From NCBI GenBank assembly GCA_903928895.1, contig CAIYSR010000186.1, positions 1 through 55,072 of the forward strand: 55,072 nt of DNA. Direction: 5' to 3'. The first letter of the stretch is position 1. Each line of letters begins with the position of its first letter. Source of the stretch: an uncultured Rhodospirillales bacterium. Lineage in GTDB: Bacteria; Pseudomonadota; Alphaproteobacteria; Acetobacterales; Acetobacteraceae. The notes beneath the pieces were generated by a model. It made no database searches. It had not been told where the DNA came from and saw nothing but the letters and a program-made list of their open reading frames with translations. The translations under genes were made by a program, and so were the position numbers. This document shows, one piece after another, positions 170-15,099 of the stretch.

Positions 170-808
170 CTAAAGAGCGACGAGCGCCGGAGCGAGGTCG
201 CCGTAGCCGGTTTGGCGGCGTTCGTAGGCGAGGCCGAGGCGGGCGGCGGCGGCTTGGGCGGCAGCGTCGAGGGTGGGGTCCTGGGTTTGGGCGAGGTAGA
301 CGACGCGTTCGTAGTTGCCGAAGTACATGTCGCGGAGTTCGGGGTGGCGGTCGAGGCCGAGGCCTTCGATGACGAGGGTGTCGAACTGGCGGGCGAGGAA
401 ATCGGTGAGGTAGAAGCTGCGCATGTCGTCGTCGCCAAGGGCGGCGAAGGCTTCGATGCCGGTGAAGAAGGCGTAGCAGTGGGCGCCGGGGAGGCGTTGG
501 ACGCCTTCTTCTTCGAGGACGCGGTCGAGCGCGCCGCCGGTGCCGCAGTCGGCGTAGGCGATGAAAATGCGAGGATGGGTGGGGCGGGCGGCGGCGATGG
601 CGGCGCGGACGGCGGGGGCGATGCGTTCGGGGCGGTTGTGCAGGAGCGCGGATAGGCAGTGGAGGGTGATGTGATCGAGGTGGTTGGCCGCGATCACGGC
701 GTTGATCTCACGGGCGAGGGCACCGCAGGCGATGATGTGGGTGGGGATCGGTCCTTCGAATTGTGTGATGTCTGGCATCTGGTTGACGCGAACCTCGGAG
801 TGAACCAT
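170..808 (-). CDS. DUF1638 domain-containing protein
   Basis: A soluble 212-residue protein resembling the DUF1638 family. The characteristic central stretch IFIAYADCGTGGALDRV is present, followed by GAHCYAFFTG and a C-terminal half with EGLGLDRHPELRDMYF. No biochemical role is established for the family, but members recur beside corrinoid-dependent methyltransferases. Here it is the last gene of the minus-strand arm that also carries the BHMT-like enzyme and the corrinoid protein, so a supporting role in that pathway is likely. The cysteines in ADCGTG and GAHCY could bind a metal or cofactor, which is inference. The start may be the first Met (808) or the Met at 778; neither has a strong ribosome site. 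A low-GC DUF3800 gene separates it from its usual partner. Confidence 0.8.
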   Translation of the reverse strand: MVHSEVRVNQMPDITQFEGPIPTHIIACGALAREINAVIAANHLDHITLHCLSALLHNRPERIAPAVRAAIAAARPTHPRIFIAYADCGTGGALDRVLEEEGVQRLPGAHCYAFFTGIEAFAALGDDDMRSFYLTDFLARQFDTLVIEGLGLDRHPELRDMYFGNYERVVYLAQTQDPTLDAAAQAAAARLGLAYERRQTGYGDLAPALVAL

Positions 809-854: not shown

Positions 855-1739
855 TTACGTCACGTCATCATCAATATCGATCTCGGCCCGCGTCCGGAGA
901 TCACTGATATGGCTGAAACTCCAGATCACGAAGTCCTGTTGCCCTTTCCTATCACGTGTCGTTCTGTGACGCAGGCAGCCGACCTGATCGGCGAAAGGCT
1001 TGAGTTCCGCGCGTGGAGCCTTTGTCATACTGTTCATCCTGAACCCCCAAGAAACAGTGTAGGCGACCAGATCGGCAATCTGAATTCCGGTCGTCAGGTC
1101 GCTATGAACAAAAAATGGCTCCGGAATGATCTGGCTTGCCCGCTGTCGACCTGTCGCCGTGTCCTTGAAGTAACGATGAGCCTGTTCGATCAGGATGTGG
1201 CTTTGCGTTTTCTCTAGTTCGTCAAAAACGATAACCCCGTATTCGCGGTCCCTCTGGTCTTCCAGAAAGTAGAAAAACCGTTCAAACAGATATCCGTAGT
1301 CTTTCCGAAGCCCATCAGATACTGTAGGTCGCGCGTCGGTCTCGACGATGCTGGCGAAGGCTCGACAGTGGAATCGAGAGCAAATCTCAAAAACTTCCTG
1401 CACATATTTTGTCTTGGCGATCGCCAATGCCTTGAGTTGCCGAACACTCGCATTCGCACCGTCATCAAGCGCCGCCTTCGCGAGGCTGGCCACATCAGCG
1501 TCGGGAACCGAGGCATTCAGCCTTAGGTGATTGAAGACCTTTGTCTTAAGAAGTTCTCGACCTTTGAGTTCTGCTTTCCCAGCGCTGTAGCGCCGACCAA
1601 AGTGTTCAAGTTCGGCCGAGTGAAGTGCATTTATAAGGTTCCACAAGTCACGATCTTGGACCGCAACCCCTGCAAGGACCTCGTATGGTGATGCCCTTCG
1701 ATCATGTCCGCTTTCGTCGATGAACAGAAACCACGCCAC
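855..1739 (-). CDS. DUF3800 domain-containing protein (probable insertion)
   Basis: Predicted 294-residue protein of the DUF3800 family. It has the N-terminal acidic motif FIDESGHD and a C-terminal GIQIADLVAY motif, both typical of this family, which has a predicted RNase H-like fold and is often found in mobile or defence-associated DNA. The GTG at 1739 is preferred over the upstream Met at 1784: it is preceded by GGGAGGG at good spacing, and the family motif begins four residues later. The upstream Met would also overlap the corrinoid gene. Base composition is visibly lower in GC than either neighbour, with A/T-rich codons. It sits between the corrinoid protein and DUF1638, splitting a conserved pair, so recent acquisition is likely. 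Its function is not known. Confidence 0.8.
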   Translation of the reverse strand: MAWFLFIDESGHDRRASPYEVLAGVAVQDRDLWNLINALHSAELEHFGRRYSAGKAELKGRELLKTKVFNHLRLNASVPDADVASLAKAALDDGANASVRQLKALAIAKTKYVQEVFEICSRFHCRAFASIVETDARPTVSDGLRKDYGYLFERFFYFLEDQRDREYGVIVFDELEKTQSHILIEQAHRYFKDTATGRQRASQIIPEPFFVHSDLTTGIQIADLVAYTVSWGFRMNSMTKAPRAELKPFADQVGCLRHRTTRDRKGQQDFVIWSFSHISDLRTRAEIDIDDDVT

Positions 1740-1755
1740 GTGCCAGCCCTCCCGG

Positions 1756-2469
1756 CTAGGCCGGTTCGGGGGCGGCGAGGCCACCCTGGTTGGAGCGGCG
1801 TTTCATGAAGGTCTGGGCGGTCTCCACGGCCACCGCGGCGTCGCGGCAGTAGGCGTCGGCGCCGACGGACATGGCGAATTCTTCGTTGAGGGGCGCGCCG
1901 CCGACGAGGACGACGAGGTCGTCGCGGATGCCTTTGTCCTTGAGCGCCTGGATGACGACTTTCATGTAGGGCATCGTGGTGGTCAGCAGCGCGGACATGC
2001 CGAGGATTTCGGGCTTGTGTTCATCGATGGCGGCGAGGAAGCGTTCGACGGAGGTGTTGACGCCGAGGTCGATGACTTCGAAGCCGGCGCCTTCGAGCAT
2101 CATGCCGACCAGGTTCTTGCCGATGTCGTGGATGTCGCCCTTGACGGTGCCGACGACCATTTTGCCGATTTTGGGGGCGCCGGTTTCGGCCAGCAGCGGG
2201 CGCAGGATGAACATGCCCGCCTTCATGGCGTTGGCGGAGAGCAGGACTTCGGGGACGAAGAGGATGCCGTCGCGGAAATCCTCGCCGACGATGCGCATGC
2301 CTTCGACGAGGGCAACGGTGAGGACTTTGTAGGGGGTCCAGCCGCGGCCGAGGAGGATGTTGACGCCGTCAATGATCTCCTCTTTGAGGCCGTCGTAGAG
2401 GTCGTCATGCATCTGGGCGACGAGGTCATCGTCGGAGAGCGCGGCGAGATTGATTTCGGCGTCGGACAT
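1756..2469 (-). CDS. Methyltransferase corrinoid protein (MttC/MtgC-like)
   Basis: A 237-residue B12-binding protein that shuttles a methyl group from a substrate methyltransferase to an acceptor methyltransferase. Residues 1-95 form the helical cap region. The cobalamin domain has the base-off signature DIHDIGKN, with the axial ligand His114 in D112-x-H114-x-x-G117. It continues with GMSALLTTTM near 157-166 and VLVGGAPLNEEFA near 187-199, both usual in this family. Length is normal for MttC/MtgC proteins. The start is supported by GAGGAA six bases upstream, overlapping the stop of the BHMT-like gene, so the two are probably translated together. The likely methyl donor enzyme is the MttB homolog at 5874-7442, encoded on the divergent arm. 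Confidence 0.93.
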   Translation of the reverse strand: MSDAEINLAALSDDDLVAQMHDDLYDGLKEEIIDGVNILLGRGWTPYKVLTVALVEGMRIVGEDFRDGILFVPEVLLSANAMKAGMFILRPLLAETGAPKIGKMVVGTVKGDIHDIGKNLVGMMLEGAGFEVIDLGVNTSVERFLAAIDEHKPEILGMSALLTTTMPYMKVVIQALKDKGIRDDLVVLVGGAPLNEEFAMSVGADAYCRDAAVAVETAQTFMKRRSNQGGLAAPEPA

Positions 2470-2478
2470 GGCGGTTCC

Positions 2479-3474
2479 TCAGGAGGCGCGGCGGCGATTG
2501 GGGCGGCGGGTGGAGGTGGCGGTGCTGGGGGGGGAGGCGAGTGGGCCGAGGCCAGCGATGACCTGTTCGAGATCGGGGCGGGCGCGCGGAGTGTGGCGGT
2601 CGAGGGCGTCGCGCATGGCGGCGAGGTGTTCGGGCGAGGTGCCGCAGCAGCCGCCGATGATGCGCGCACCGGCGTCGCGCGCGAGGCGGGCGTATTCGGC
2701 CATCAGTTCGGGGGTGCCGGTGTAGACGACGCTGTCGCCTTTGACGCGGGGGACGCCGCAATTGGCTTTGGCGATGACGATGGCGTCGGGCTGGGCTTCG
2801 GTGATGGAGAGCACGGAGCAGACCAGGTCGGAGGCGCCGACGCCGCAATTGCAGCCGACGCCGTGGGGCGGCGGGGTGAAGCCGAGGGTGGCGGTGGCCA
2901 TGGAGGCCGGCGAGAGTCCCATCATAGTCATGCCGGCGGTGTCGAAGCTGGCGGTGATGGTGAATTCCATGCCGCACTGGGTGGCGGCGACGGCGGCGGC
3001 GCGCATTTCCTCGAGCGCGGACATGGTCTCGATCCAGATCACGTCGGCGCCGCCGGCCTTGAGGCCCTCGATCTGTTCGGCGAAGATCTCGACGGCGATG
3101 GCTTCGGTGAGTTCGCCGAGGGGGGCGAAGAGGTCGCCGGTGGGGCCGACGGAGCCGCCGACGAGCATGCGGCGGCCGGATTTGGCGGCGACGTCTCGTG
3201 CGAGGGAGGCGGCGACTTTGTTGAGCTCGTGGACGCGGGTGTGGGCGTTGTGCAGGCGCAGGCGGCGCGAGGTGCCGCCGAAGGTGTTGGTGAGGATGAT
3301 GTCGGCGCCGGCGTCGACGAAGGACTGGTGGAGGCGGCGGATTTCGTCGGGCCGGTCGGTGTTCCAGAGTTCGGGGGCCTCGCCCGAGGTGAGGCCCCGG
3401 TCGAACAGGTTGGTGCCGGTGGCGCCATCGGCGAGCAGCCAGCCGCGTTCGCTCAGCAGGTTCTCGATGATCAT
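2479..3474 (-). CDS. Homocysteine S-methyltransferase family protein (BHMT/MetH-N like)
   Basis: A cytoplasmic 331-residue zinc-dependent methyltransferase of the homocysteine S-methyltransferase family. The opening ADGATGTNLFDRG motif, LTNTFGGTS, GGSVGPTGDL and the C-terminal zinc-binding GGCCGTSPEH are all visible, with a third cysteine in NCGVGASDL, the usual thiolate set. It probably moves the methyl group from the methyl-corrinoid protein encoded next to it to homocysteine; that acceptor is inferred from family. I place the start at the Met at 3474, because the 29 residues in front of it are proline/arginine-rich and do not resemble the family. Only nine bases separate it from the corrinoid gene. 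Confidence 0.9.
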   Translation of the reverse strand: MIIENLLSERGWLLADGATGTNLFDRGLTSGEAPELWNTDRPDEIRRLHQSFVDAGADIILTNTFGGTSRRLRLHNAHTRVHELNKVAASLARDVAAKSGRRMLVGGSVGPTGDLFAPLGELTEAIAVEIFAEQIEGLKAGGADVIWIETMSALEEMRAAAVAATQCGMEFTITASFDTAGMTMMGLSPASMATATLGFTPPPHGVGCNCGVGASDLVCSVLSITEAQPDAIVIAKANCGVPRVKGDSVVYTGTPELMAEYARLARDAGARIIGGCCGTSPEHLAAMRDALDRHTPRARPDLEQVIAGLGPLASPPSTATSTRRPNRRRAS

Positions 3475-3527
3475 CTGCCCGTGCCCCCTTGCCTCTCGCC
3501 AAGCCCGTGTCGGGGCCGGTAGTGTGG

Positions 3528-3543
3528 CCGGCCCTTCGGCCGG
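3528..3543. promoter_or_regulatory. Inverted repeat in the divergent methyltransferase promoter region
   Basis: CCGGCC and GGCCGG flank a CTTC loop, giving a perfect six-base inverted repeat. It lies in the 112-base region between the divergent starts at 3474 and 3587. It could be an operator or a hairpin. No sigma-70 boxes are convincing around it. Confidence 0.35.
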
Positions 3544-3586
3544 TTGTTGGAAGGGCTTCATTTAGCGAGGTTTCGTCGGGTTCGCC

Positions 3587-3883
3587 ATGGCACAACGCAT
3601 CATTCTCTATTGGCGGGATATTCCGACCCAGGTGATCGTCCGGCAGGGACGGACGACGGCGAAACGGGAGCTCGCGCCGCGCTTCGCCATTGCGGTGGAT
3701 GCGGCGGCGATGAAGGCGGGGATGCACGGGTCGGACGCGTATCTGGAGCAATGGCGGCGGGGGGCGCCGGAGGTGTGCGGGGACGATCTTGAGGCGGAGG
3801 TGGTTCGGGCGGCGGCAGCGCTGGAGGCGGAGTATGATCCGCAGCGGCTGGCGGCGTTGGTCCAGAATGGCGGCGCGGGCTGA
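3587..3883 (+). CDS. PF13769-like small protein ('virulence factor' family)
   Basis: A 98-residue soluble protein opening IILYWRDIPTQVIVRQGR, with a central ELAPRFAIAVDAAAM and an acidic C-terminal helix. This resembles the short proteins named 'virulence factor' (PF13769) that often accompany MttB-type methyltransferases in alphaproteobacteria. The family name is historical and no function is established. Its stop overlaps the start of the corrinoid activator by one base (TGATG), so it heads the plus-strand operon and is probably made in step with the activator. No transmembrane segment or signal peptide is visible, and the ribosome site is weak. Confidence 0.75.
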   Translation: MAQRIILYWRDIPTQVIVRQGRTTAKRELAPRFAIAVDAAAMKAGMHGSDAYLEQWRRGAPEVCGDDLEAEVVRAAAALEAEYDPQRLAALVQNGGAG

Positions 3884-5877
3884 TGGAGGTTCAGGATAAG
3901 CTGCCCGCTGAAAAACTGGTTGTTTTTCAACCGAGTGGGCGACGGGGGCGGTTTGCGGTGGGGACGCCGTTGCTTGATGCCGCGCGGTCGCTGGGGGTTT
4001 ACATCGAGAGCGTGTGTGGCGGGCGGGCGATGTGCGCGCGCTGCCAGATCGAGGTGGCGGAGGGGCAGTTCGACAAGCATGGGATCACCAGCAGCAACGA
4101 TCATCTGAGCCCGATGGGCGAGGCCGAGCGGCGCTGGAAGGTGCCGGGGGCGCGGCGGATGTCGTGCCAGGCGCGGATCACGGGCGATCTGGTGGTGGAT
4201 GTGCCGACGGAATTCGCGGTCAACCGCCAGGTGGTGCGCAAGCGGGCCGAAGTGCGGCGGATTGCGCTGGATACGGCGACGCGGCTGGTGCGGGTGGAAT
4301 TGCCGGCGGCGGAGATGGAGCGGCCGATTGGCGATGCGGACCGGTTGATCGAGGCGATCGAGGCGCAGGCGGGGTATCGCGGGCTGGTGCTGGATGTGAC
4401 GTTGCTGGGCTCGGTGCAGGCGGTGGTGTCGGGGGGCTCGCTGACGGCGGCGGTGCATGAGGATGCGGACAGGCCGGTGATCGTGGCGTTGTGGCCAGGG
4501 GAGCGGACCAGCGTGTTCGGGCTCGCGTTCGATATCGGCTCGACCACGATTGCGGGGCATCTGGTGGATCTGGCCACGGGGCGGGCGGTGGCGTCGGCGG
4601 GGACGGCCAATCCGCAGATCCGGTTCGGCGAGGACCTGATGAGCCGGGTGTCGTATGTGATGATGCACCCGGAAGGGTGCGCGGCGCTGACAACGGCGGT
4701 GCGCGGCGCGATTGCGACGCTGGTGACCCGACTGGCGGGGCAGGCGGGGATTGCGGCCACCGATATCCTGGAGGCGGTGTTTGTCGGCAATCCGGTGATG
4801 CATCATCTGTTTCTGGGGATCGATCCGAGTGCGCTGGGGCAGGCGCCGTTCGCGCTGGCAGTGTCTGGCGCGTTGCGGCTCAATGCGCGTGATCTGGGGC
4901 TTGGGCTGCATCCGGGGGCGCGGGTCTATATGCCGCCATGCATTGCCGGGCATGTGGGGGCGGATGCGGCGGCGGTGGCGCTGGCGGAGGGGCCGCAGCA
5001 CCATGACGAGGTGACGCTGGTGATCGATGTCGGCACCAATGCGGAGATCCTGCTGGGCAATCGCGCCCGGGTGCTGGCGGCGAGTTCGCCGACCGGGCCG
5101 GCGTTCGAGGGCGCGCAGATTTCCTCGGGGCAGCGGGCGGCGCCCGGCGCCATCGAGCGGGTGCGGATCGACCCGCTGACGTTCGAGCCGCGGATCAAGG
5201 TGCTGGGGGTCGACCTCTGGTCCGACGAGGCGGGGTTCGAGGAGGCGGTGGCCGCGACCGGGGTGACCGGGATTTGCGGGTCGGGGATCATCGAGGCGGT
5301 GGCGGAGATGTTCCTGGTGGGGATCGTGGCCGCGGACGGGACGATCGTGGAGGTGGCATCGGACCGGATGAGGGCGAGCGGGCGGGTGTTCGATTTCGTG
5401 CTGTGGCGGGGCGAGATCGAGATCGCGGTGACGCAGACCGATATCCGCGCGATCCAGTTGGCGAAGGGCGCGCTCTATGCCGGGGCGCGGCTGCTGATGG
5501 ATCATCTCGGCGTGAGCGAGGTCGGCCGGATCAAACTGGCCGGGGCATTTGGTTCTTATATCGATCCAAAATATGCGATGGTGCTGGGGATGATCCCGGA
5601 TTGTGCGCTGGACCGGGTGAGTTCGATCGGCAATGCGGCGGGGACGGGGGCGCGGATGGCGCTGCTCAACCGGGGGCATCGGGCCGAAATGGAGGCGCTG
5701 GTGCGGCGGGTGGAGAAGATCGAGACGGCGCTGGAGCCGCGGTTCCAGGAGCATTTCGTGAGCGCGATGGCACTGCCGAACGCGATCGATCCGTTTCCGC
5801 ATCTGGCGGCGGCGGTGGTATTGCCGGTGGCGTCGAGCGCGCCACGGGAACGGCGTGGCGGCAGGAGGCGGGGATGA
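3883..5877 (+). CDS. Corrinoid reductive activator, 2Fe-2S ferredoxin plus ASKHA ATPase (RACo/RamA-like)
   Basis: A 664-residue protein that re-reduces inactive cob(II)alamin on the corrinoid protein, driving the uphill electron transfer with ATP. Residues about 13-105 form a plant-type 2Fe-2S domain with ligands C45, C51, C54 and C95 (CGGRAMCARC, then MSC). A linker follows. From about residue 212 the ASKHA-fold domain carries FDIGSTT as phosphate-binding loop, then VIDVGTNAE and a C-terminal KLAGAFGSYIDP. Length and order match RACo proteins (DUF4445 family). It overlaps the MttB gene by four bases (ATGA) and follows the small PF13769-like gene by one-base overlap. The natural electron donor is unknown; the membrane Rieske module immediately downstream of mttB is a candidate (inference). 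Confidence 0.92.
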   Translation: MEVQDKLPAEKLVVFQPSGRRGRFAVGTPLLDAARSLGVYIESVCGGRAMCARCQIEVAEGQFDKHGITSSNDHLSPMGEAERRWKVPGARRMSCQARITGDLVVDVPTEFAVNRQVVRKRAEVRRIALDTATRLVRVELPAAEMERPIGDADRLIEAIEAQAGYRGLVLDVTLLGSVQAVVSGGSLTAAVHEDADRPVIVALWPGERTSVFGLAFDIGSTTIAGHLVDLATGRAVASAGTANPQIRFGEDLMSRVSYVMMHPEGCAALTTAVRGAIATLVTRLAGQAGIAATDILEAVFVGNPVMHHLFLGIDPSALGQAPFALAVSGALRLNARDLGLGLHPGARVYMPPCIAGHVGADAAAVALAEGPQHHDEVTLVIDVGTNAEILLGNRARVLAASSPTGPAFEGAQISSGQRAAPGAIERVRIDPLTFEPRIKVLGVDLWSDEAGFEEAVAATGVTGICGSGIIEAVAEMFLVGIVAADGTIVEVASDRMRASGRVFDFVLWRGEIEIAVTQTDIRAIQLAKGALYAGARLLMDHLGVSEVGRIKLAGAFGSYIDPKYAMVLGMIPDCALDRVSSIGNAAGTGARMALLNRGHRAEMEALVRRVEKIETALEPRFQEHFVSAMALPNAIDPFPHLAAAVVLPVASSAPRERRGGRRRG

Positions 5878-7442
5878 GCGAGACCGCGATGAAGGAAGGT
5901 GGGGGTGCGCGGCGCGGCGGACGGGCCGGACGAGCGGGGCGGAGTGCCCTGCCCTTCCCGGTTGATCAGAAGCCGTTCCGCCAGCCACGGCGGCGGTTTC
6001 CGGCGACGGATGTGGTTTCGGCCGATGCGCTGGAGGCAATCCATGCGGCGTCGCTGACGATCCTTGAGGAAATCGGGATGGATTTCCTCAATGCCGAGGC
6101 CCGCGACATCATGGTCAAGGCGGGCGCTTCGGTGGCGCCGGGGACGATCCGGGTGCGGATGCCGCGCGAGATGATCGAGGCGGCGATTACGACGTGTCCG
6201 GCGGAATTCACCCTGCATGCGCGCAATCCGGCCCATGACGTGCGCATCGGCGGCGACACGGTGGCGTTCGCGCAGATGGCGAGCGCGCCGAACTGCTCCG
6301 ATCTCGATGGCGGGCGGCGGGCCGGGAGCCAGGCCGATTTCCGCAACCTCATCAAGCTCGGCCAGAGCTTCAATATCCTGCATCTGACGGCAGGGTATCC
6401 GGTGGAGCCGGTCGATCTGCATCCCTCCGTCCGGCATCTGGATTGCCTGCATGATTTCGCGGTGATGACGGACAAGGTGTTTCATGCCTATTCGCTCGGC
6501 ACCGAGCGGATCAGGGATGGCATCGAGATCGCGCGGATCGCGCGGGGGATTTCACGGTCTGAATTGCTGGAGCAGCCATCGCTGCTGACGGTGATCAATT
6601 CGAGCTCGCCGCTGCGGCTGGATGATCCGATGCTGGAGGGGATCATCGAGATGGCGCGGATGGGGCAGTGCGTGGTGATGACCCCGTTCACGCTCGCGGG
6701 GGCGATGGCGCCGGTGACGATCGCGGGAGCGCTGGCGCAGCAGAATGCGGAGGCGCTGGCGGGGATTGCGCTGTCACAGCTGGTGCGGCCGGGCGCGCCG
6801 GTGATGTATGGCGGGTTCACCTCCAACGTCGACATGAAGTCGGGCGCCCCCGCGTTCGGGACGCCGGAATACATGAAGGCGGCGATGGCGGGGGGGCAAC
6901 TGGCGCGGCGCTACGGGATTCCGTACCGGACGTCCAATGTGTGTGCCGCCAACACGGTGGATGCGCAGGCAGCGTATGAGAGCGTGTTCTCGCTGTGGGG
7001 GACCACCATGGGGGGCGGGAATTTCATCATGCATTCCGCCGGGTGGCTGGAGGGGGGGCTCACCTGTTCGTTCGAGAAGACTATCCTTGACATCGATTTG
7101 TTGCAGATGGTGGCGGAGTTTCTCGATCCGCTAGTGGTGGATGACGCGACGCTGGCGCTCGATGCGGTGCGCGAGGTGGGGCCGGGCGGGCATTTCTTCG
7201 GCACCGAGCATACGCAGGCACGGTATCGCGATGCGTTCTATGCCCCGGTTTTGTCGGATTGGCGGAATTTCGAGAGCTGGCAGGAGGCGGGGAGCCCGAC
7301 GGCGATGGAAAAAGCCAATCTTGTGTGGAAAGAATGTCTGGCGGCGTATCAGGCGCCGCCGATCGACCCGGGAGTGGCCGAGGAACTCGGGGCCTATGTC
7401 GGGCGGCGCAAGGCCGAGGGCGGGTTCAAGACGGATTTCTGA
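5874..7442 (+). CDS. MttB/MtgB-family methyltransferase, non-pyrrolysine type
   Basis: A 522-residue TIM-barrel methyltransferase of the trimethylamine/glycine-betaine methyltransferase family. It would demethylate a quaternary amine and pass the methyl to the corrinoid protein at 1756-2469. Family stretches include LEEIGMDFLNAEARDIM, VMTPFTLAGAMAPVTIAG, VMYGGFTSNVDMKSGAPAFGTPEY and WLEGGLTCSFEK. The frame runs without an internal amber codon, so it is of the pyrrolysine-free class, known for glycine betaine, proline betaine, carnitine and similar substrates. The actual substrate cannot be told from sequence. The start is ATG at 5874, with GGAGG upstream and a four-base overlap with the activator gene. 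The first 30 residues are a basic, Gly/Arg-rich extension before the conserved core. Confidence 0.93.
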   Translation: MSETAMKEGGGARRGGRAGRAGRSALPFPVDQKPFRQPRRRFPATDVVSADALEAIHAASLTILEEIGMDFLNAEARDIMVKAGASVAPGTIRVRMPREMIEAAITTCPAEFTLHARNPAHDVRIGGDTVAFAQMASAPNCSDLDGGRRAGSQADFRNLIKLGQSFNILHLTAGYPVEPVDLHPSVRHLDCLHDFAVMTDKVFHAYSLGTERIRDGIEIARIARGISRSELLEQPSLLTVINSSSPLRLDDPMLEGIIEMARMGQCVVMTPFTLAGAMAPVTIAGALAQQNAEALAGIALSQLVRPGAPVMYGGFTSNVDMKSGAPAFGTPEYMKAAMAGGQLARRYGIPYRTSNVCAANTVDAQAAYESVFSLWGTTMGGGNFIMHSAGWLEGGLTCSFEKTILDIDLLQMVAEFLDPLVVDDATLALDAVREVGPGGHFFGTEHTQARYRDAFYAPVLSDWRNFESWQEAGSPTAMEKANLVWKECLAAYQAPPIDPGVAEELGAYVGRRKAEGGFKTDF

Positions 7443-7778
7443 ATGGGACATGGCATCATCGTCGCGGCCGAAATCTATGGCGGGATCGGCGCCTTGGTTG
7501 CGGCGTGGTTCCTGCTGGTGCGGATCGAGCGCGATGATGCGATGGCGCGGGGGGCGTATGGGTTCCGCCCGCTGCTGGTGCCAGGGCTGGTGATGCTGTG
7601 GCCGCTGGTGCTGTGGCGGGTGGGGGCGCCGGCGCCGCTGGCGCGTTCGTTCCGGCGGGGGCATTTGGTGATCTGGGGGGCGCTTGCGGTGGTGTTGCCG
7701 ATCCTGGTGCTGGGGAGCCTGGTGCTCCGGCAGAACGGGCCGATCGAGACGCCGCCGGTTCGGTTGTCCGCGCCATGA
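7443..7778 (+). CDS. Small membrane protein of the methyltransferase operon
   Basis: A 111-residue protein with no family I recognise. It has three hydrophobic stretches: about 5-25 (IIVAAEIYGGIGALVAAWFLLV), 44-60 (LLVPGLVMLWPLVLW) and 75-95 (LVIWGALAVVLPILVLGSLV). The middle loop carries the basic motif RSFRRGH. Its ATG follows the stop codon of mttB directly, and its own stop overlaps the start of the Rieske fusion gene (ATGA). It is therefore translated with both. The close packing suggests a subunit or assembly partner of the cytochrome/Rieske protein (inference). Confidence 0.75.
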   Translation: MGHGIIVAAEIYGGIGALVAAWFLLVRIERDDAMARGAYGFRPLLVPGLVMLWPLVLWRVGAPAPLARSFRRGHLVIWGALAVVLPILVLGSLVLRQNGPIETPPVRLSAP

Positions 7779-8818
7779 GCGTGAAATATGTCCCGGTCGG
7801 GTGGAGCCGGACCAAGCTGGTCTATGACTTCGTGCTGGTGGCCGGCGTGCTGGTTTATCTGCTGGCTTATCTCGGGTTGGCCGGGCCGTTGCAGCCCGAA
7901 TTGATGCCGCCCGATGGGGGGTCGTTGCCGATCAAGGCGTTCGGGACCTGCGCATTTCTGCTGCTGGGGGCGGCGCTGGCGATCGGGCCTTTGGCGCGGC
8001 TGGACCGGCGGTTTTTGCCGCTGCTGTATAACCGGCGGCATTTCGGGGTGATCACCACTTCGGTGGCGGCGGCCCATGCCTGGCATGTGGTGGGATGGTA
8101 TTTCGCCTTTGCCGCGACGCCGCCGCTGGAGGGGATGCTGACGGCGGATACCGCGTTTTTCCAGCTGCGCGGGTTTCCGTTCATCCCGTTCGGGATTGCG
8201 GCGCTCGCGATCTTGATGGCGCTGGCGTTCACCAGCCATGATTTCTGGTTGAATTTCCTTGGCGCGCCGGTGTGGAAGCGGCTGCATATGGCGGTCTATC
8301 CGGCCTATGGGTTGGCGGTGCTGCATGTCTGCCTGGGCGCGTTGCAGGATGCGCGCAATCCGTTGTTCGCGATGGTGGTGGCGGGGCAGGTGGCGGTGCT
8401 GTGCGGGCTGCATGTCGCGGCGGGGCGCAAGGCGCGGGGCGAGGATGTGGCGCCGGAGGTTTCGGGGGATTGGGTGGATGCGGGGCCGGTGGCGGCGATC
8501 GCCGAGGGGCGCGGGGTGGTGGTGGCGCTGGGGGACGGGGTGTCGGCGGCGGTGTTCCGCGATGGCGGCCGGTTGTCGGCGATCAGCAATTTGTGCGCGC
8601 ACCAGAACGGGCCGCTCGGCGAGGGGCGGGTGATCGATGGTTGCGTGACCTGCCCGTGGCATGGCTATCAATATCGGCTGATCGATGGCTGCGCGCCGGC
8701 GCCGTTCAGCGAGAGGCTGGCGACCTACCGGCTGCGGCTGGCGGGCGGGCGGGTGTGGCTGGATCGCCAGGGGAATCCGCCGGGGACCGCGGTGGAGCCG
8801 CTTGAGGTGGGGATATGA
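7775..8818 (+). CDS. Ferric-reductase-like membrane protein with C-terminal Rieske 2Fe-2S domain
   Basis: A 347-residue membrane redox protein. The N-terminal 220 residues contain about six hydrophobic segments with paired histidines in suitable places for b-type heme (H101/H104 and H171/H184 are candidates), resembling ferric-reductase-like transmembrane domains. The C-terminal 110 residues are a Rieske domain with C274-x-H276 and C293-x-x-H296 (NLCAHQ and TCPWHGYQ). It lacks the flavin/NAD-binding module of true ferric reductases. The start codon overlaps the preceding gene and its stop overlaps the next, so it belongs to the mttB operon. It probably moves electrons between the membrane quinone pool and a soluble acceptor. 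Whether it serves the corrinoid activator or an oxygenase-type reaction is open. Confidence 0.85.
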   Translation: MSVKYVPVGWSRTKLVYDFVLVAGVLVYLLAYLGLAGPLQPELMPPDGGSLPIKAFGTCAFLLLGAALAIGPLARLDRRFLPLLYNRRHFGVITTSVAAAHAWHVVGWYFAFAATPPLEGMLTADTAFFQLRGFPFIPFGIAALAILMALAFTSHDFWLNFLGAPVWKRLHMAVYPAYGLAVLHVCLGALQDARNPLFAMVVAGQVAVLCGLHVAAGRKARGEDVAPEVSGDWVDAGPVAAIAEGRGVVVALGDGVSAAVFRDGGRLSAISNLCAHQNGPLGEGRVIDGCVTCPWHGYQYRLIDGCAPAPFSERLATYRLRLAGGRVWLDRQGNPPGTAVEPLEVGI

Positions 8819-9561
8819 GCGGGCACGAGGATTTCTTCATCGGCTGGGCCGACCGGGTGCCGCACGGGCATGGGCGGGTGCTGGGGTGGGCGGCGGCAGG
8901 GTTCGTGCTGGGGCTGTTGCTGCTGGCGGTCGGCCTGGCGTGGACGATCGATGACGCGGGGGCCGGCGGTGGTGACTGGGCGGCGGGGGAGCAGACGCTG
9001 GTCGGGGTGGTGACGACGAAGCCCTATGCACTGCTGCATCTGCCCGCCGACGCGAAGCATCCGGCGCCGCATACGATGATGCTGAGCGTGGTGGGGAAGT
9101 ATCCGGTGGTGGTGCCCGAGGCGTGGGAGGGGCGCGCCATCGTCGCCAAGGGCTGGGTGGTGCGCCGCGGCGCACTCGATATGGTGCAGATGACCGCCGC
9201 ACCGGTGCTGGCGGAGGGCCCGGGCGGGGCACAAGAGGCCGTCGAGCGGTTGGGGCGGTGGCGGGTGACCGGGGAGATCTGCGATGGGCAATGCTATGTC
9301 GGGCTGATGCGGCCTGGCACCGGGATTGCGCATCGGGCCTGCGCCGATTTCTGCCTCGCCGGGGGGGTGCCGCCGGTGTTTGTCACCACCGCGCCGTTGC
9401 GCGGGCAGTCGTTCCTGGTGATGGCCGATGCCGCCGGGGGGCCGGTGGGCAAGGAGATGTTCGACTATGTCGGGCTGCGCGTACGGCTCGATGGCGAGGT
9501 GGAGCGGCATGGCGACATGCTGGTGTTCAAGGCGGACTTTGCTTCGGTGAAGGTGCCATGA
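8815..9561 (+). CDS. Hypothetical membrane-anchored protein, redox operon
   Basis: A 248-residue protein with one N-terminal membrane anchor at about 22-47 (VLGWAAAGFVLGLLLLAVGLAW) and a soluble region predicted outside the cytoplasm. That region contains YALLHLP, a GEICDGQCYVGLMRPG stretch and HRACADFCLAGG: four cysteines in two clusters that could form disulfides or hold a metal. The latter half, with PVFVTTAPLRGQSFLV and KEMFDYVGLRVRLDG, suggests a beta-rich OB-like fold. I do not recognise a named family. It overlaps both neighbours by four bases (ATGA), implying a fixed ratio with the Rieske protein. A periplasmic redox or assembly partner is inferred. Confidence 0.75.
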   Translation: MSGHEDFFIGWADRVPHGHGRVLGWAAAGFVLGLLLLAVGLAWTIDDAGAGGGDWAAGEQTLVGVVTTKPYALLHLPADAKHPAPHTMMLSVVGKYPVVVPEAWEGRAIVAKGWVVRRGALDMVQMTAAPVLAEGPGGAQEAVERLGRWRVTGEICDGQCYVGLMRPGTGIAHRACADFCLAGGVPPVFVTTAPLRGQSFLVMADAAGGPVGKEMFDYVGLRVRLDGEVERHGDMLVFKADFASVKVP

Positions 9562-9746
9562 GAGTGGTGCTCACCCTGGTCGCCGTGGCCATCGGAGCGG
9601 CGGCTTGGCAAGGTGGCGGCTGGCTCGGGGAGCATCTCGGGTTGGAGGTGTTCGATCCGCTGACCCGGCTCGCGCTGCTGCTCGCGGTGCTCGCCGGGTT
9701 CGAGCGGGTGCTGACGTTCGGGAATGGAAAAAACCATGCTGACTGA
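9558..9746 (+). CDS. Small two-helix membrane protein
   Basis: A 62-residue protein with a hydrophobic start (MRVVLTLVAVAIGAAAW) and a second segment near 37-50 (LTRLALLLAVLAGFE), ending in a polar tail. Its ATG overlaps the stop of the previous gene (ATGA), which is the main reason to accept it. The start of the downstream lactonase lies inside its last codons. It has no recognised family. It is probably the fourth membrane component of the 7.4-9.7 kb redox module. Confidence 0.6.
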   Translation: MRVVLTLVAVAIGAAAWQGGGWLGEHLGLEVFDPLTRLALLLAVLAGFERVLTFGNGKNHAD

Positions 9747-10641
9747 CGATTTCGTGGTGCTCGATCCGCGCTTTGCCGCGCTCGCGATGGGCAATGTGCA
9801 TGTCGAGAAACTCTTCACCGGCTGCCGTTGGGCGGAGGGGCCGGCCTGGTTCGGCGGCGGGCGGTATCTGGTGTGGTCGGATATTCCGAACGACCGGATG
9901 ATGCGGTTCGACGAGACCGACGGTTCGGTGTCCGTGTTCCGGCAGCCCGCGATGAATTCCAACGGCAACACGGTTGACCGCGAGGGCCGGCTGGTGACCT
10001 GCGAGCATCGCGGCCGACGCGTCACCCGGACCGAGCATGACGGGCGGATCACGGTGCTGGCCGACCGGTTCGAGGGCAAGCGGTTCAACTCGCCGAACGA
10101 CGCGGTGGTGAAGTCCGACGGCAGCGTGTGGTTCACCGATCCGTCCTACGGCATCGATTCCGACTATGAAGGCGATGCCGCACCGTCCGAGATCGGGGCG
10201 TGTCATGTCTATCGGATCGATCCCGACGGCTCCGTGACCGTGGTGGCGGATGATTTCGCCAAGCCCAACGGGCTCGCCTTTTCGCCCGACGAGAGCCGGC
10301 TCTTCATCGTCGATACCGGGCGCTCGCACGGGGCGCAGTATCCCAAGCACATGCGCCGCTTCGAGGTGAACACCGATGGGCGGACATTGTCCGGCGGCGG
10401 CGTGTTCGCCGAAAGCGAGGTCGGCATGTTCGACGGGCTGCGGGTGGATGTGCACGGCAATGTCTGGACCAGCTCGGGCGACGGGGTGCGCTGCTACGCG
10501 GGCGACGGCACCCTGCTCGGGATCATCCGCATTCCCGAAGTGGTGGCGAATTGCTGTTTCGGCGGGCGCAAGCGCAACCGGCTGTTCATCTGCGGCACCA
10601 CCAGCCTGTATGCGGTCTATCTCAACACCAGGGGGGCGTGA
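9736..10641 (+). CDS. SMP-30/gluconolactonase/LRE family lactonase
   Basis: A 301-residue six-bladed propeller lactonase or hydrolase. Typical motifs are CRWAEGPAWFGGGRYLVWSD, the N-rich MNSNGNTVDREGRLVTCEH, RFNSPNDAVVKSDGSVWFTDPSYG, KPNGLAFSPDESRLFIVDT and DGLRVDVHGNVWTSS. The metal-site residues Glu (AEGP), Asn (SPND) and Asp (FDGLRVD) are present. It would open a sugar-acid lactone or related cyclic ester. I chose the ATG at 9736 over the ATG at 9724 because it has GGA at better spacing. It overlaps the preceding small membrane gene by eleven bases and the next gene by one. Its link to the methyltransferase pathway is by position only. Confidence 0.88.
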   Translation: MLTDDFVVLDPRFAALAMGNVHVEKLFTGCRWAEGPAWFGGGRYLVWSDIPNDRMMRFDETDGSVSVFRQPAMNSNGNTVDREGRLVTCEHRGRRVTRTEHDGRITVLADRFEGKRFNSPNDAVVKSDGSVWFTDPSYGIDSDYEGDAAPSEIGACHVYRIDPDGSVTVVADDFAKPNGLAFSPDESRLFIVDTGRSHGAQYPKHMRRFEVNTDGRTLSGGGVFAESEVGMFDGLRVDVHGNVWTSSGDGVRCYAGDGTLLGIIRIPEVVANCCFGGRKRNRLFICGTTSLYAVYLNTRGA

Positions 10642-11327
10642 TGCGGCTCTGCTGGTTCGCCAATGTCCGCGGCCCCGCCATCGATGCCGCCACCGAAGCC
10701 AGGCTCGCCGATCTGCTCGCACAAACCCCCGGCGCCGGGGAGATCCTGATCCATACCTCCGCCAGCACCCACGACCCCTACCTCGATGACGGCCCCCCTC
10801 CCACCCTTGCCCTTCAGGTTTACTTCGACGACATCGCCGCCCTCGAAGCGGCCTGCGCCAAAGCCGGCCACCTCCAGGCCCTCCAGGCAGCACTGCCCGG
10901 CCTCACCTCGGCCTCCCAGCAAGCCATGCTCGCTCGCGCCTTCCCAGTGCCGGATGCAACCTTCCGGACCCCGCCCGGGGCCAAACCCTGTACCTACCTC
11001 GTCGCCTATGAAGGCCAGGCGGAAAATCTCAACGCCTGGCTCGACTACTACATCGCCTCACACCCCCCGATCATGGCCCGCTTCCCTGCCATCCGGCAGA
11101 TCGAAATCTGCACCCGCATCGACTGGATCACCCACCTCCCCTTCCCCGCCATCAGCCATATGCAACGCAACAAAGTGGTGTTCGACGACCAAACCGCCCT
11201 GACCGCCGCCCTCAACTCCCCCACCCGCCACGAGATGCGCGCCGACTTCGCCCACTTCCCGCCCTTCACGGGCCCGACATCGCACTACCCCATGCATACG
11301 AGGATGGTGGGGCCGAGCAGAGGGTAG
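10641..11327 (+). CDS. EthD-like/dimeric alpha-beta barrel hypothetical protein
   Basis: A 228-residue protein with two ferredoxin-like halves. The first has LALQVYFDDIAALEAA; the second has CTYLVAYEGQAENLNAWLDY, HPPIMARFPAIRQIEI and NKVVFDD. This arrangement resembles EthD or stress-responsive dimeric barrel proteins, though I cannot name a precise family. It starts one base before the end of the lactonase gene (TGATG), so the two are co-translated. Base composition changes here: the coding strand is C-rich, whereas the preceding 9 kb is G-rich on the same strand. The C-terminus ends just short of an IS630 fossil, so the last few residues may be altered. Confidence 0.7.
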   Translation: MRLCWFANVRGPAIDAATEARLADLLAQTPGAGEILIHTSASTHDPYLDDGPPPTLALQVYFDDIAALEAACAKAGHLQALQAALPGLTSASQQAMLARAFPVPDATFRTPPGAKPCTYLVAYEGQAENLNAWLDYYIASHPPIMARFPAIRQIEICTRIDWITHLPFPAISHMQRNKVVFDDQTALTAALNSPTRHEMRADFAHFPPFTGPTSHYPMHTRMVGPSRG

Positions 11328-13455: not shown

Positions 13456-13977
13456 TCAGACCAACCCGGCACCCCCCAGCAACGCGCCCGCGCCCAGCAG
13501 CCACAGCGGATGGATCGCGGTTCCCAGGCTCAACCCGGCGACCGCCAGGGTCACCAGTCCGAGTGCGATGCTGCGATCGGCCGCCAACGCGATCATGCTG
13601 GCCGCAGCCAGGAATAGCCCCACCGTCACCGGCACCAGCCCAGCCTGAATGGCACGGCGCCAGGGCGCGTCGCGGAAGCGGTCCCACAAACGGACCACGC
13701 CGATGGTCAGCAGTGAGGACGGCCCGATCATGCCCAACGTCGCCGCCAGCGCTCCCCACAGCCCCGCGACGTGCAGGCCGACGAGGGTGGAGACCATCAT
13801 GTTCGGCCCCGGTGCGGCCTGCGCGAGCGCGAACAATGCGGCGAAATCGGCGGCCGACATCCAGTGGTGCACGTCCACAATCTGCCGCTGCATTTCTGGC
13901 AACACCGTGGGGCCACCACCGAAGGCGAGCAGCGAGAGTTGGGCATAGAGCAGGAACAGCGCCAGCGGATCGGTCAT
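13456..13977 (-). CDS. Chromate transporter family protein, C-terminal half partner
   Basis: A 173-residue membrane protein of the short-chain CHR family, in which two half-size proteins together make one transporter. Conserved pieces are SLLAFGGGPTVLPEMQRQ near the N-terminus and ALAQAAPGPNMMV, then four to five hydrophobic segments. The start at 13977 overlaps the stop of the other half (ATGA), so the pair is translated together. The role is chromate or sulfate-like anion transport at the inner membrane. The true substrate in such pairs is often unproven. Confidence 0.88.
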   Translation of the reverse strand: MTDPLALFLLYAQLSLLAFGGGPTVLPEMQRQIVDVHHWMSAADFAALFALAQAAPGPNMMVSTLVGLHVAGLWGALAATLGMIGPSSLLTIGVVRLWDRFRDAPWRRAIQAGLVPVTVGLFLAAASMIALAADRSIALGLVTLAVAGLSLGTAIHPLWLLGAGALLGGAGLV

Positions 13978-14537
13978 CGGCCGCGCCGCCACGCCATCGC
14001 GATGCCGAGCGGCGCCATCACCGCCATCGTCGCCAGCATCGGCACGCGCAGCACGGCGATCGCCACCAACGTCAGCGCCGCCAGTCCGGCTGCCGGCAGG
14101 TCACGGCGCAGCGGCAGCGCGACCTTCAGTGCCATCGCCACGATGAGCCCGCCCGCCGCCGCCGCCAACCCAGCAAAGCCATGGCGCACCGCGGGTTCGC
14201 CTTCGAAGCGGGCGTAGAATAGCCCAAGCGCGATCACCACGGCACAGGGCGCGCACATCAGCCCGGCCAGCCCAGCCAACGCCCCCCGCCAGCCGCGGAA
14301 GCGCAACCCCACCGCAGCCGAGAGGTTGATCACATTGCCACCGGGCAGGAACTGGCACAGCGCAAGCATGTCAGTGAATTCCGCCCCGCTCATCCAGCGC
14401 CGCTCCTCGACGATCATCCGCCGCGCCAGCGGCAGCACGCCGCCGAAGCCGATGATGCCCACTGAAAAAAAACCGCCGAAGATCGCGGCGACGCTGGGCG
14501 GGGCGGCAACGGAGGGCGTGGGAACGATGTCGATCAT
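13974..14537 (-). CDS. Chromate transporter family protein, N-terminal half partner
   Basis: A 187-residue membrane protein with the CHR signature FSVGIIGFGGVLPLARRMIVEE and ALCQFLPGGNVINLS, followed by alternating hydrophobic helices. It pairs with the 173-residue half that starts within its stop codon. The Met at 14537 is preferred over the Met at 14579, which would overlap the divergent tag gene and adds residues unlike the family. The ribosome site is weak. Only about 34 bases separate it from the divergent tag start, so their promoters must overlap. Confidence 0.88.
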   Translation of the reverse strand: MIDIVPTPSVAAPPSVAAIFGGFFSVGIIGFGGVLPLARRMIVEERRWMSGAEFTDMLALCQFLPGGNVINLSAAVGLRFRGWRGALAGLAGLMCAPCAVVIALGLFYARFEGEPAVRHGFAGLAAAAGGLIVAMALKVALPLRRDLPAAGLAALTLVAIAVLRVPMLATMAVMAPLGIAMAWRRGR

Positions 14538-14571
14538 GTGGCATGGATAGGGGGAAACCAGGGGATTGGAA

Positions 14572-15099
14572 ATGAGCACCTATTGTCGCATCGCGCCCGG
14601 CCATCCGGTCCATCACGACTATCATGCGACCGAATACGGGTTTCCGCAGCGCGACGAGACCGTGCTGTTCGAGCGTCTGGTGCTGGAGATCATGCAGGCC
14701 GGTCTGTCCTGGGAGCTGGTGTTGAAACGCCGCGCCGGCATGCGCGCCGCGTTCCATGGCTTCGACGTTGCGCGCATCGCGGCCTATGGCGAGACCGACT
14801 CGGCACGGCTCTTGGCGGACCCCGCGATCATCCGCAACCGCCTGAAAGTGGCCGCGATCATCCACAACGCGAACGTGGTGCTCGGCTTGCGCCGCTGCGG
14901 CGGCTTCGCCCGCTGGCTCGACACCCACCACCCTCGCGACAAGGCCGCCTGGGTCAAACTGTTCGGCGGGACCTTCAAATTCACCGGCGGCGAAATCGTC
15001 GGAGAATTCCTCATGAGCCTCGGCTACCTCCCCGGCGCCCACGCCGAGGACTGCCCGATCGGCGCGGAAATCCGCGCCCGCCATCCTGCCGCGGCTTAG
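14572..15099 (+). CDS. tag: DNA-3-methyladenine glycosylase I
   Basis: A 175-residue base-excision repair enzyme that removes 3-methyladenine from DNA. The sequence shows HDYHATEYGFP, then VLFERLVLEIMQAGLSWELVLKRR, with Glu39 and Trp47 in the positions of the base-recognition residues. The structural zinc set is complete: Cys5, His18, His157 and Cys161. Length is slightly short compared with the E. coli enzyme (187) but covers the whole fold. The ATG at 14572 follows GGGGATTGGAA. It is transcribed away from the chromate transporter pair. Confidence 0.95.
   Translation: MSTYCRIAPGHPVHHDYHATEYGFPQRDETVLFERLVLEIMQAGLSWELVLKRRAGMRAAFHGFDVARIAAYGETDSARLLADPAIIRNRLKVAAIIHNANVVLGLRRCGGFARWLDTHHPRDKAAWVKLFGGTFKFTGGEIVGEFLMSLGYLPGAHAEDCPIGAEIRARHPAAA

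What the first reader, a model, noticed from the sequence alone, without database searches (positions are those of the whole stretch)
3587..9746. Aerobic MttB methyltransferase operon fused to a membrane cytochrome/Rieske module
RACo-type activator and MttB homolog overlap by ATGA. They are followed with no gap by four small to medium membrane genes that overlap one another by four bases: a three-helix protein, a ferric-reductase-like/Rieske fusion, a cysteine-bearing anchored protein and a two-helix protein. Corrinoid activators need a low-potential electron donor, and in aerobes this donor is not known. The sequence shows the coupling; that the module feeds electrons to the activator, or oxidises a methyl-derived product, is inference.
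Basis: partly seen in the sequence, partly recalled or inferred. Interest (0 to 1): 0.8.

Follow-up and report, generated by a model that had tools for sequence, protein, structure and literature searches.

The report
Vitamin-B12 methyltransferase operon with redox cassette
A known set of vitamin-B12-dependent methyl-transfer genes has, in one small group of bacteria, picked up a four-gene membrane electron-transfer cassette that elsewhere mostly lies apart from those genes and has been lost from the same operon in a close relative, so it is probably not needed for the methyl transfer.

Summary
The B12 part is a known system, the split methionine synthase/glycine-betaine methyltransferase of Alphaproteobacteria (PMC12478193, PMC5764234). 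The membrane part (m1-m4) is a separate conserved cassette: an MsrQ/YedZ-type cytochrome fused to a ferredoxin-type Rieske domain (m2), and an anchored protein with an invariant C4H motif (m3). Among the 80 best of 303 m3 relatives it lies in one run with MttB in 3, all close kin of the window, but in one locus with Rieske-tagged FMN or TPP enzymes in 43. It does not track RACo: 5 of 7 RACo genomes in 250 of the order gave no m2 match. A congener keeps the divergon (RACo 89%, MttB 91%, MtgC 98% identical) without m1-m3, with a decayed m4 left behind and no m2 or m3 match elsewhere. That the module supplies the corrinoid activator's electrons is therefore not supported. Best reading: an independent transmembrane electron conduit recruited once into this operon. 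My searches found no description of the cassette.

The parts
170..808 (-). DUF1638 protein (PF07796), in other Alphaproteobacteria linked to B12 reactivation together with the RamA/RACo-like protein
   Evidence: PMC5764234 passages
1756..2469 (-). corrinoid (B12-binding) protein, MtgC-like
   Evidence: best NCBIfam match NF047996 MtgC 2.5e-60, 203.5 bits against a cut-off of 370
2479..3561 (-). homocysteine S-methyltransferase, MtgD-like (true start may be the internal ATG at 3474)
   Evidence: PF02574 7e-63; start seen in the translation
3587..3883 (+). small PF13769 protein (Pfam name 'Virulence factor'; nothing here bears on virulence), first gene of the operon
3883..5877 (+). RACo/RamA-like ATP-dependent corrinoid activator with N-terminal [2Fe-2S] ferredoxin domain
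   Evidence: one RACo_C_ter match in the genome
5874..7442 (+). MttB-superfamily methyltransferase, one of three matches in the genome
7443..7778 (+). m1, three-helix membrane protein of the cassette
   Evidence: found upstream of m2 in 70 of 80 relatives
7775..8818 (+). m2, MsrQ/YedZ-type cytochrome b domain (R87, H101, H171, H184) fused to a C-terminal ferredoxin-type Rieske domain (C274-x-H276 ... C293-xx-H296)
8815..9561 (+). m3, one N-terminal helix and a beta-rich body, invariant CxxxC...HxxCxxxC
9558..9746 (+). m4, two-helix membrane protein, weakly conserved
9736..10641 (+). SMP-30/gluconolactonase-like protein; present in all 5 kin loci, including the one without m1-m3
10641..11327 (+). 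EthD-family protein (TIGR02118), last gene of the coupled run (ATG 10641, or GTG 10638)

Best explanation
It is a composite operon. The first half and the divergent genes are the known aerobic B12 system: MttB demethylates a methylated (probably quaternary) amine, the methyl group goes to the MtgC-like corrinoid protein, MtgD passes it to homocysteine, and RACo with DUF1638 re-reduces Co(II) using ATP. The second half, m1-m4, is a self-standing membrane redox cassette joined to the B12 operon once, in this small clade. Most likely mechanism of the cassette: the cytosolic Rieske domain of m2 exchanges electrons with a soluble cytosolic redox enzyme, the MsrQ-type haem carries them through the membrane, and the anchored m3, with its C4H site, is the periplasmic acceptor or donor; m1 and m4 would be small structural subunits. 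In this operon it is an accessory and not required for corrinoid activation. Shown: gene order, domains, conserved ligands, single linkage to mttB in the sampled tree, absence from a congener that keeps the B12 genes. Inferred: direction of electron flow, topology, the partner of m2, and every substrate.
For: The divergon has the parts described as MtgB/C/D, RamA and DUF1638 (families). Cassette independent of it: 13 cassette loci from 12 other genomes of the order (one a partial m2, two without m3) show no MttB, RACo, MtgC or MtgD match in the 12-19.5 kb fetched. Of the 80 best of 303 m3 relatives, MttB is in the same run in 3 and on the other strand about 3.3 kb off in a fourth (L124); Rieske-GltS or Rieske-TPP fusions are in the locus in 43. 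MttB-linked m2 copies form one branch (4 of 64 rows, SH-aLRT 100). Congener G246 lacks m1-m3 and keeps a 91-bp m4 remnant (score 72, best of 200 shuffles 36); it has no m3 (34 of 34 candidates scored) and no m2 (8 of 10 scored), while MtgC and MttB are 98% and 91% identical with dN/dS 0.04 and 0.10. m2 has MsrQ R77/H91/H151/H164 at R87/H101/H171/H184, invariant in 52 of 52 rows, as are the four Rieske ligands; the C4H residues of m3 are invariant in 73 of 73.
Against: Four genomes with 63-77% identity in m1-m3 keep the cassette in the MttB operon under purifying selection, which allows a local functional link. Co-occurrence is not nil: class sample, MttB in 7 of 16 genomes with m3 against 75 of 369 without, Fisher p 0.053 (0.099 without the own genome); order sample, 2 of 12 against 5 of 238, p 0.039 (0.24 without own). 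dN/dS between window and G246 averages time before and after the loss. That G246 lost the cassette, rather than never having had it, rests on the m4 remnant; the m3 end is only 23 of 33 identical bases in one stretch chosen after seeing it (0 of 5000 shuffles reach it, but a blind local alignment of the scar's first 90 bp to m3 was no better than 102 of 500 shuffles, and to m2 8 of 500). Hydropathy flags five segments in m2, not six; TM3 rests on the AlphaFold model. No cofactor, topology or electron flow was measured.
Confidence: 0.6

Rival explanations
1. One reading: the cassette is the low-potential electron donor of RACo in an aerobe; membrane electrons (possibly driven by the proton gradient) pass through haem b and the Rieske domain of m2 to the [2Fe-2S] domain of RACo.
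For: Same coupled run in 4 of 5 kin loci; the Rieske domain would be on RACo's side of the membrane if m2 is N-in/C-in; no donor of the aerobic RamA-like activators was named in the passages read.
Against: 5 of 7 RACo genomes of the order gave no m2 match, 4 of these also no m3; the congener with the same divergon lacks the cassette; MttB is absent from 76 of 80 cassette loci and from 13 of 13 fetched in the order. Energetics: the activator cluster of A. dehalogenans is at -330 mV (PMC6739815 passage), ferredoxin-type Rieske clusters are near -150 mV (recalled, no call), so the step would be uphill.
Confidence: 0.1
2. The cassette serves the downstream half of the operon: it takes electrons from oxidation of a demethylated product handled with the SMP-30 and EthD proteins.
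For: m4 overlaps the SMP-30 gene, and SMP-30-EthD are present in all 5 kin loci.
Against: SMP-30 and EthD stay conserved in the congener without m1-m3; an SMP-30 match near the cassette outside the clade was seen in 1 of 77 loci, on the other strand (L078).
Confidence: 0.1
3. The cassette is an envelope redox-repair or stress module like MsrPQ, unrelated to the B12 genes, placed under their promoter by chance.
For: m2 is MsrQ-like in family and ligands; neighbours in the order are diverse by eye (SDR, patatin-like, phytoene-synthase-like, LysR, of which SDR and patatin families were confirmed in other loci); absence from G246 is tolerated.
Against: Recurrent presence beside Rieske-tagged FMN and TPP enzymes (43 of 80 loci) points to a cytosolic metabolic partner; none of the ten operon proteins scanned with Pfam is an MsrP-like molybdoenzyme.
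Confidence: 0.2

Closest known systems
MtgBCD(E) glycine-betaine demethylase / split methionine synthase of Ruegeria, Phaeobacter, Sinorhizobium (PMC12478193, PMC5764234)
   Same: MttB-family enzyme, MtgC-like corrinoid protein, MtgD-like homocysteine methyltransferase, RamA/RACo-like activator and DUF1638 together
   Different: Here a Rieske-cytochrome cassette and SMP-30/EthD genes follow in the operon; the MttB substrate is unknown; MtgE was not looked for
MsrQ (YedZ), haem subunit of MsrPQ
   Same: Ferric_reduct fold; R87/H101/H171/H184 align with E. coli MsrQ R77/H91/H151/H164
   Different: C-terminal Rieske domain, extra invariant H89 and H155, no MsrP; NF003831 45.4 bits against a cut-off of 130
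Rieske ferredoxins of aromatic dioxygenases (carbazole and naphthalene dioxygenase systems)
   Same: Rieske domain of m2 aligns with target-normalised TM-score 0.81-0.90; CxH...CxxH ligands
   Different: Tethered to a membrane cytochrome instead of serving an oxygenase

Membership tests
Aerobic MtgBCD + RamA/DUF1638 B12 system | MttB-family methyltransferase, corrinoid protein, homocysteine methyltransferase, RACo-like activator and DUF1638 in one locus | tested here: met
   co-location described in PMC12478193 section 7
Aerobic MtgBCD + RamA/DUF1638 B12 system | corrinoid protein scores over the curated MtgC models | tested here: not met
   NF047996 203.5 bits against 370, NF047995 166.1 against 310; the published marine MtgC itself was not compared
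Aerobic MtgBCD + RamA/DUF1638 B12 system | substrate is glycine betaine | not testable with these tools
   nearest PDB entries are 4yyc and 2qne (putative) and 9yce (glycine betaine methyltransferase); sequence does not fix the substrate
RACo-type activators | N-terminal [2Fe-2S] domain plus linker, middle and ASKHA C-terminal domains | tested here: met
   Fer2, RACo_linker, Raco_middle, RACo_C_ter all over cut-off
MsrQ/YedZ cytochromes (m2) | Ferric_reduct domain with Arg in place of the first haem histidine and the three other histidines kept | tested here: met
   signature as given in PMC3591440 passages
MsrQ/YedZ cytochromes (m2) | scores over the curated MsrQ model and pairs with MsrP | tested here: not met
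   NF003831 45.4 bits against 130; no molybdoenzyme among the operon proteins
bc1/b6f-type Rieske proteins | extra disulfide cysteines around the cluster | tested here: not met
   CAHQNGP / CPWH lacks them (motif rule recalled); top structural matches are dioxygenase ferredoxins, though b6f-type chains also match more weakly (8hn2)
Dedicated RACo electron donor | co-occurs with RACo/mttB | tested here: not met
   weak enrichment noted

The most novel reading that the evidence does not exclude
m1-m4 is an undescribed plug-in transmembrane electron conduit of Alphaproteobacteria that docks to cytosolic iron-sulfur enzymes of different classes (Rieske-FMN, Rieske-TPP), and in this clade it has been re-wired to the ferredoxin domain of the corrinoid activator RACo, giving it a membrane-derived electron supply.
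Probability: 0.1. Interest if true: 0.75.

Novelty: new variant of a known kind. Interest (0 to 1): 0.4.

Why it matters
It weakens a tempting candidate for the unknown electron donor of aerobic corrinoid activators: a natural loss shows the B12 genes persisting without the module. It also brings to light a conserved, uncharacterised redox cassette (MsrQ-like cytochrome fused to a Rieske domain, with an anchored C4H partner) that recurs beside Rieske-tagged FMN and TPP enzymes and can be tested in named isolates such as Pseudovibrio and Roseibium strains (titles).

Tried and rejected
Rejected: that the module is a dedicated RACo donor. Rejected: that m2 is a classic four-histidine di-haem FRD; the first haem-histidine position is Arg, though invariant H89 and H155 remain unexplained. 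Led nowhere: PDB sequence search with m3 (no match up to E 10), Foldseek with m3 (best E 0.042), MttB tree for placing the congener (branch order within the clade unresolved). Literature for the cassette. One search listed one paper, on FRD evolution (PMC3591440, passages read), which names Rieske among domain extensions of bacterial FRD proteins; 41, 67 and 84 listed none; 83 listed four, of which I read passages of two (PMC10715153; PMC5676040), neither describing this cassette; the other two were seen as listings only. PMC11334425 (passages) treats MsrQ-like cytochromes without Rieske. Searches were listings; from 65 I read passages of PMC6739815 only.

Limits: the class survey scored at most 7 candidates per genome (m3) or 3 (MttB), so its counts are lower bounds, and its list of MttB matches was cut by the tool. 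The order survey of m2 scored at most 8 per genome. One search kept 80 of 303 relatives and is biased to the nearest; 62 of 80 loci have over 4 kb upstream. 24 of 88 m2 rows were left out of the tree by hand as near-copies or duplicates. In some searches the window genome's matches lie outside the Rieske part; of its 11 TPP matches 8 were listed. One title (L119, Solirubrobacterales) is outside Alphaproteobacteria and may be a mis-binned contig.
Full report
What is there. On the plus strand nine genes run without real gaps: a PF13769 protein (3587-3883), RACo (3883-5877), MttB (5874-7442), m1 (7443-7778), m2 (7775-8818), m3 (8815-9561), m4 (9558-9746), an SMP-30/gluconolactonase (9736-10641) and an EthD-family protein (10641-11327). 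Divergently lie an MtgD-like and an MtgC-like gene and, past a DUF3800 gene, DUF1638.

The B12 half is known. Price et al. (PMC5764234, passages read) found by fitness data that Phaeobacter inhibens uses a three-part methionine synthase with a DUF4445 RamA-like protein and DUF1638. Mausz et al. [quoted passage not shown] The window's divergon has these parts, but its corrinoid protein scores below the curated MtgC models. The genome has three MttB matches and one RACo match.

The membrane half is a separate cassette. In 250 genomes of the order (the own genome included), m2 is full-length in 12, MttB over cut-off in 7 and RACo present in 7; m2 and MttB co-occur in G000 and G227, in the latter on different contigs. 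For 13 cassette loci from 12 other genomes (one with a partial m2, one a second copy in G212), stretches of 12-19.5 kb hold no MttB, RACo, MtgC or MtgD match. A scan of 84,980 species genomes with the m3 alignment gave 303 relatives, of which the best 80 were kept. In 80 of 80, m2 lies just upstream of m3; m1 is found in 70. MttB is in the same run in 3 (L049, L050, L051, the three closest) and on the opposite strand about 3.3 kb away in one more (L124). A Rieske-Glu_synthase (FMN) fusion is in the locus in 39 of 80, a Rieske-TPP fusion in 18, either in 43 (families, counts). In the window's genome the listed matches to both fusion proteins start after the Rieske part.

In 385 genomes of the class, m3 was found in 16, MttB in 82, both in 7. 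Among the MttB matches the tool listed for the 6 other genomes, none is near m3; the list was cut and at most 3 MttB candidates per genome were scored. Fisher tests are borderline with the own genome (p 0.053 class, 0.039 order) and not significant without it (0.099, 0.24).

A natural loss. G246, of the same genus, has the same divergon and operon: DUF1638 85%, MtgC 98%, MtgD 88%, PF13769 91%, RACo 89%, MttB 91%, SMP-30 90%, EthD 77% identical. Between MttB and SMP-30 it has about 250 bp in place of m1-m4. There a decayed m4 remains (91-bp local match, score 72, best of 200 shuffles 36), while matches to m1 (25 against 37) and m2 (33 against 33) do not exceed shuffles. The end of m3 may also remain: 23 of 33 bases up to its stop, reached by 0 of 5000 shuffles, but this stretch was picked after seeing it, and a blind local alignment to m3 was not significant (102 of 500 shuffles as good), with a faint m2 match (8 of 500). 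No m2 (8 of 10 candidates scored) or m3 (34 of 34 scored) was found elsewhere in that genome, which is 96% complete. The B12 genes there are conserved (dN/dS 0.04-0.26, averaged over the time before and after the loss). The m4 remnant says that the ancestor had the cassette; the B12 half outlives it.

What the cassette is. m2 has six long helices in an AlphaFold model (pLDDT 88.7; hydropathy alone flags five segments) and a C-terminal Rieske domain. Aligned to E. coli MsrQ it keeps R87, H101, H171, H184 = R77, H91, H151, H164, the YedZ/STEAP signature described in PMC3591440 (passages). These, the extra H89 and H155, and the Rieske ligands C274, H276, C293, H296 are invariant in 52 of 52 rows. 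The Rieske domain matches dioxygenase ferredoxins best. A cytosolic N- and C-terminus is my inference from six helices; the loop-charge count is weak support. m3 has one N-terminal helix and a beta-rich body, pLDDT 88.7, which I read as two OB-like domains, with C156, C160, H173, C176, C180 invariant in 73 of 73 rows. No solved relative was found by sequence or with confidence by fold (best E 0.042; many of the weak matches are OB-fold proteins by my own knowledge). The four MttB-linked m2 proteins form one branch, support 100, near other cassettes of the order (64 of 88 rows used): one linkage event in this sample.

Mechanism. The parts fit a transmembrane conduit: cytosolic partner - Rieske - haem b - periplasmic m3, direction unknown. 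Supplying RACo is energetically awkward: the activator cluster of A. dehalogenans lies at -330 mV (PMC6739815, passage), while ferredoxin-type Rieske clusters are near -150 mV (recalled, from no call). With the natural loss and the weak co-occurrence I put that reading at 0.1.

Verdict. Observation confirmed and extended; the coupling is real but, in what was sampled, limited to one small clade; the electron-donor inference is not supported. The cassette was not found described in searches and deserves study on its own.

Noticed in passing
window 855-1784 (-): DUF3800 gene (PF12686, 1.4e-21) of 53.9% GC, against 64-71% for the operon genes, sits between DUF1638 and the MtgC-like gene; in congener L136 the flanking matched stretches are 75 bp apart, so it looks like an insertion. 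Weak PADLOC match only (PDC-M04A, 17.6 bits).
   Followed up: partly
L062:4825-6441, L110:9018-11003 and homologues in 43 of 80 loci: Rieske-Glu_synthase (FMN) and Rieske-TPP fusion enzymes beside the cassette, with a Na/H exchanger in 12 of 80 loci; no function known to me.
   Followed up: partly
L081, L084, L095, L104, L105, L106: Two homocysteine-S-methyltransferase-like genes in tandem about 2-3.3 kb downstream of a cassette, with a Rieske-GltS gene between.
   Followed up: no
L045 (G212, contig C45): G212 carries a second, diverged m2 copy (50% identical to the window's) with an m1 match but no m3 match.
   Followed up: no
window 13456-14579 (-): Two adjacent single-domain chromate-transporter genes (PF02417).
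   Followed up: no
window 2479-3561 (-): The listed start of the MtgD-like gene leaves 25 bp to the divergent gene; an internal ATG at 3474 would leave 112 bp for the promoters.
   Followed up: no
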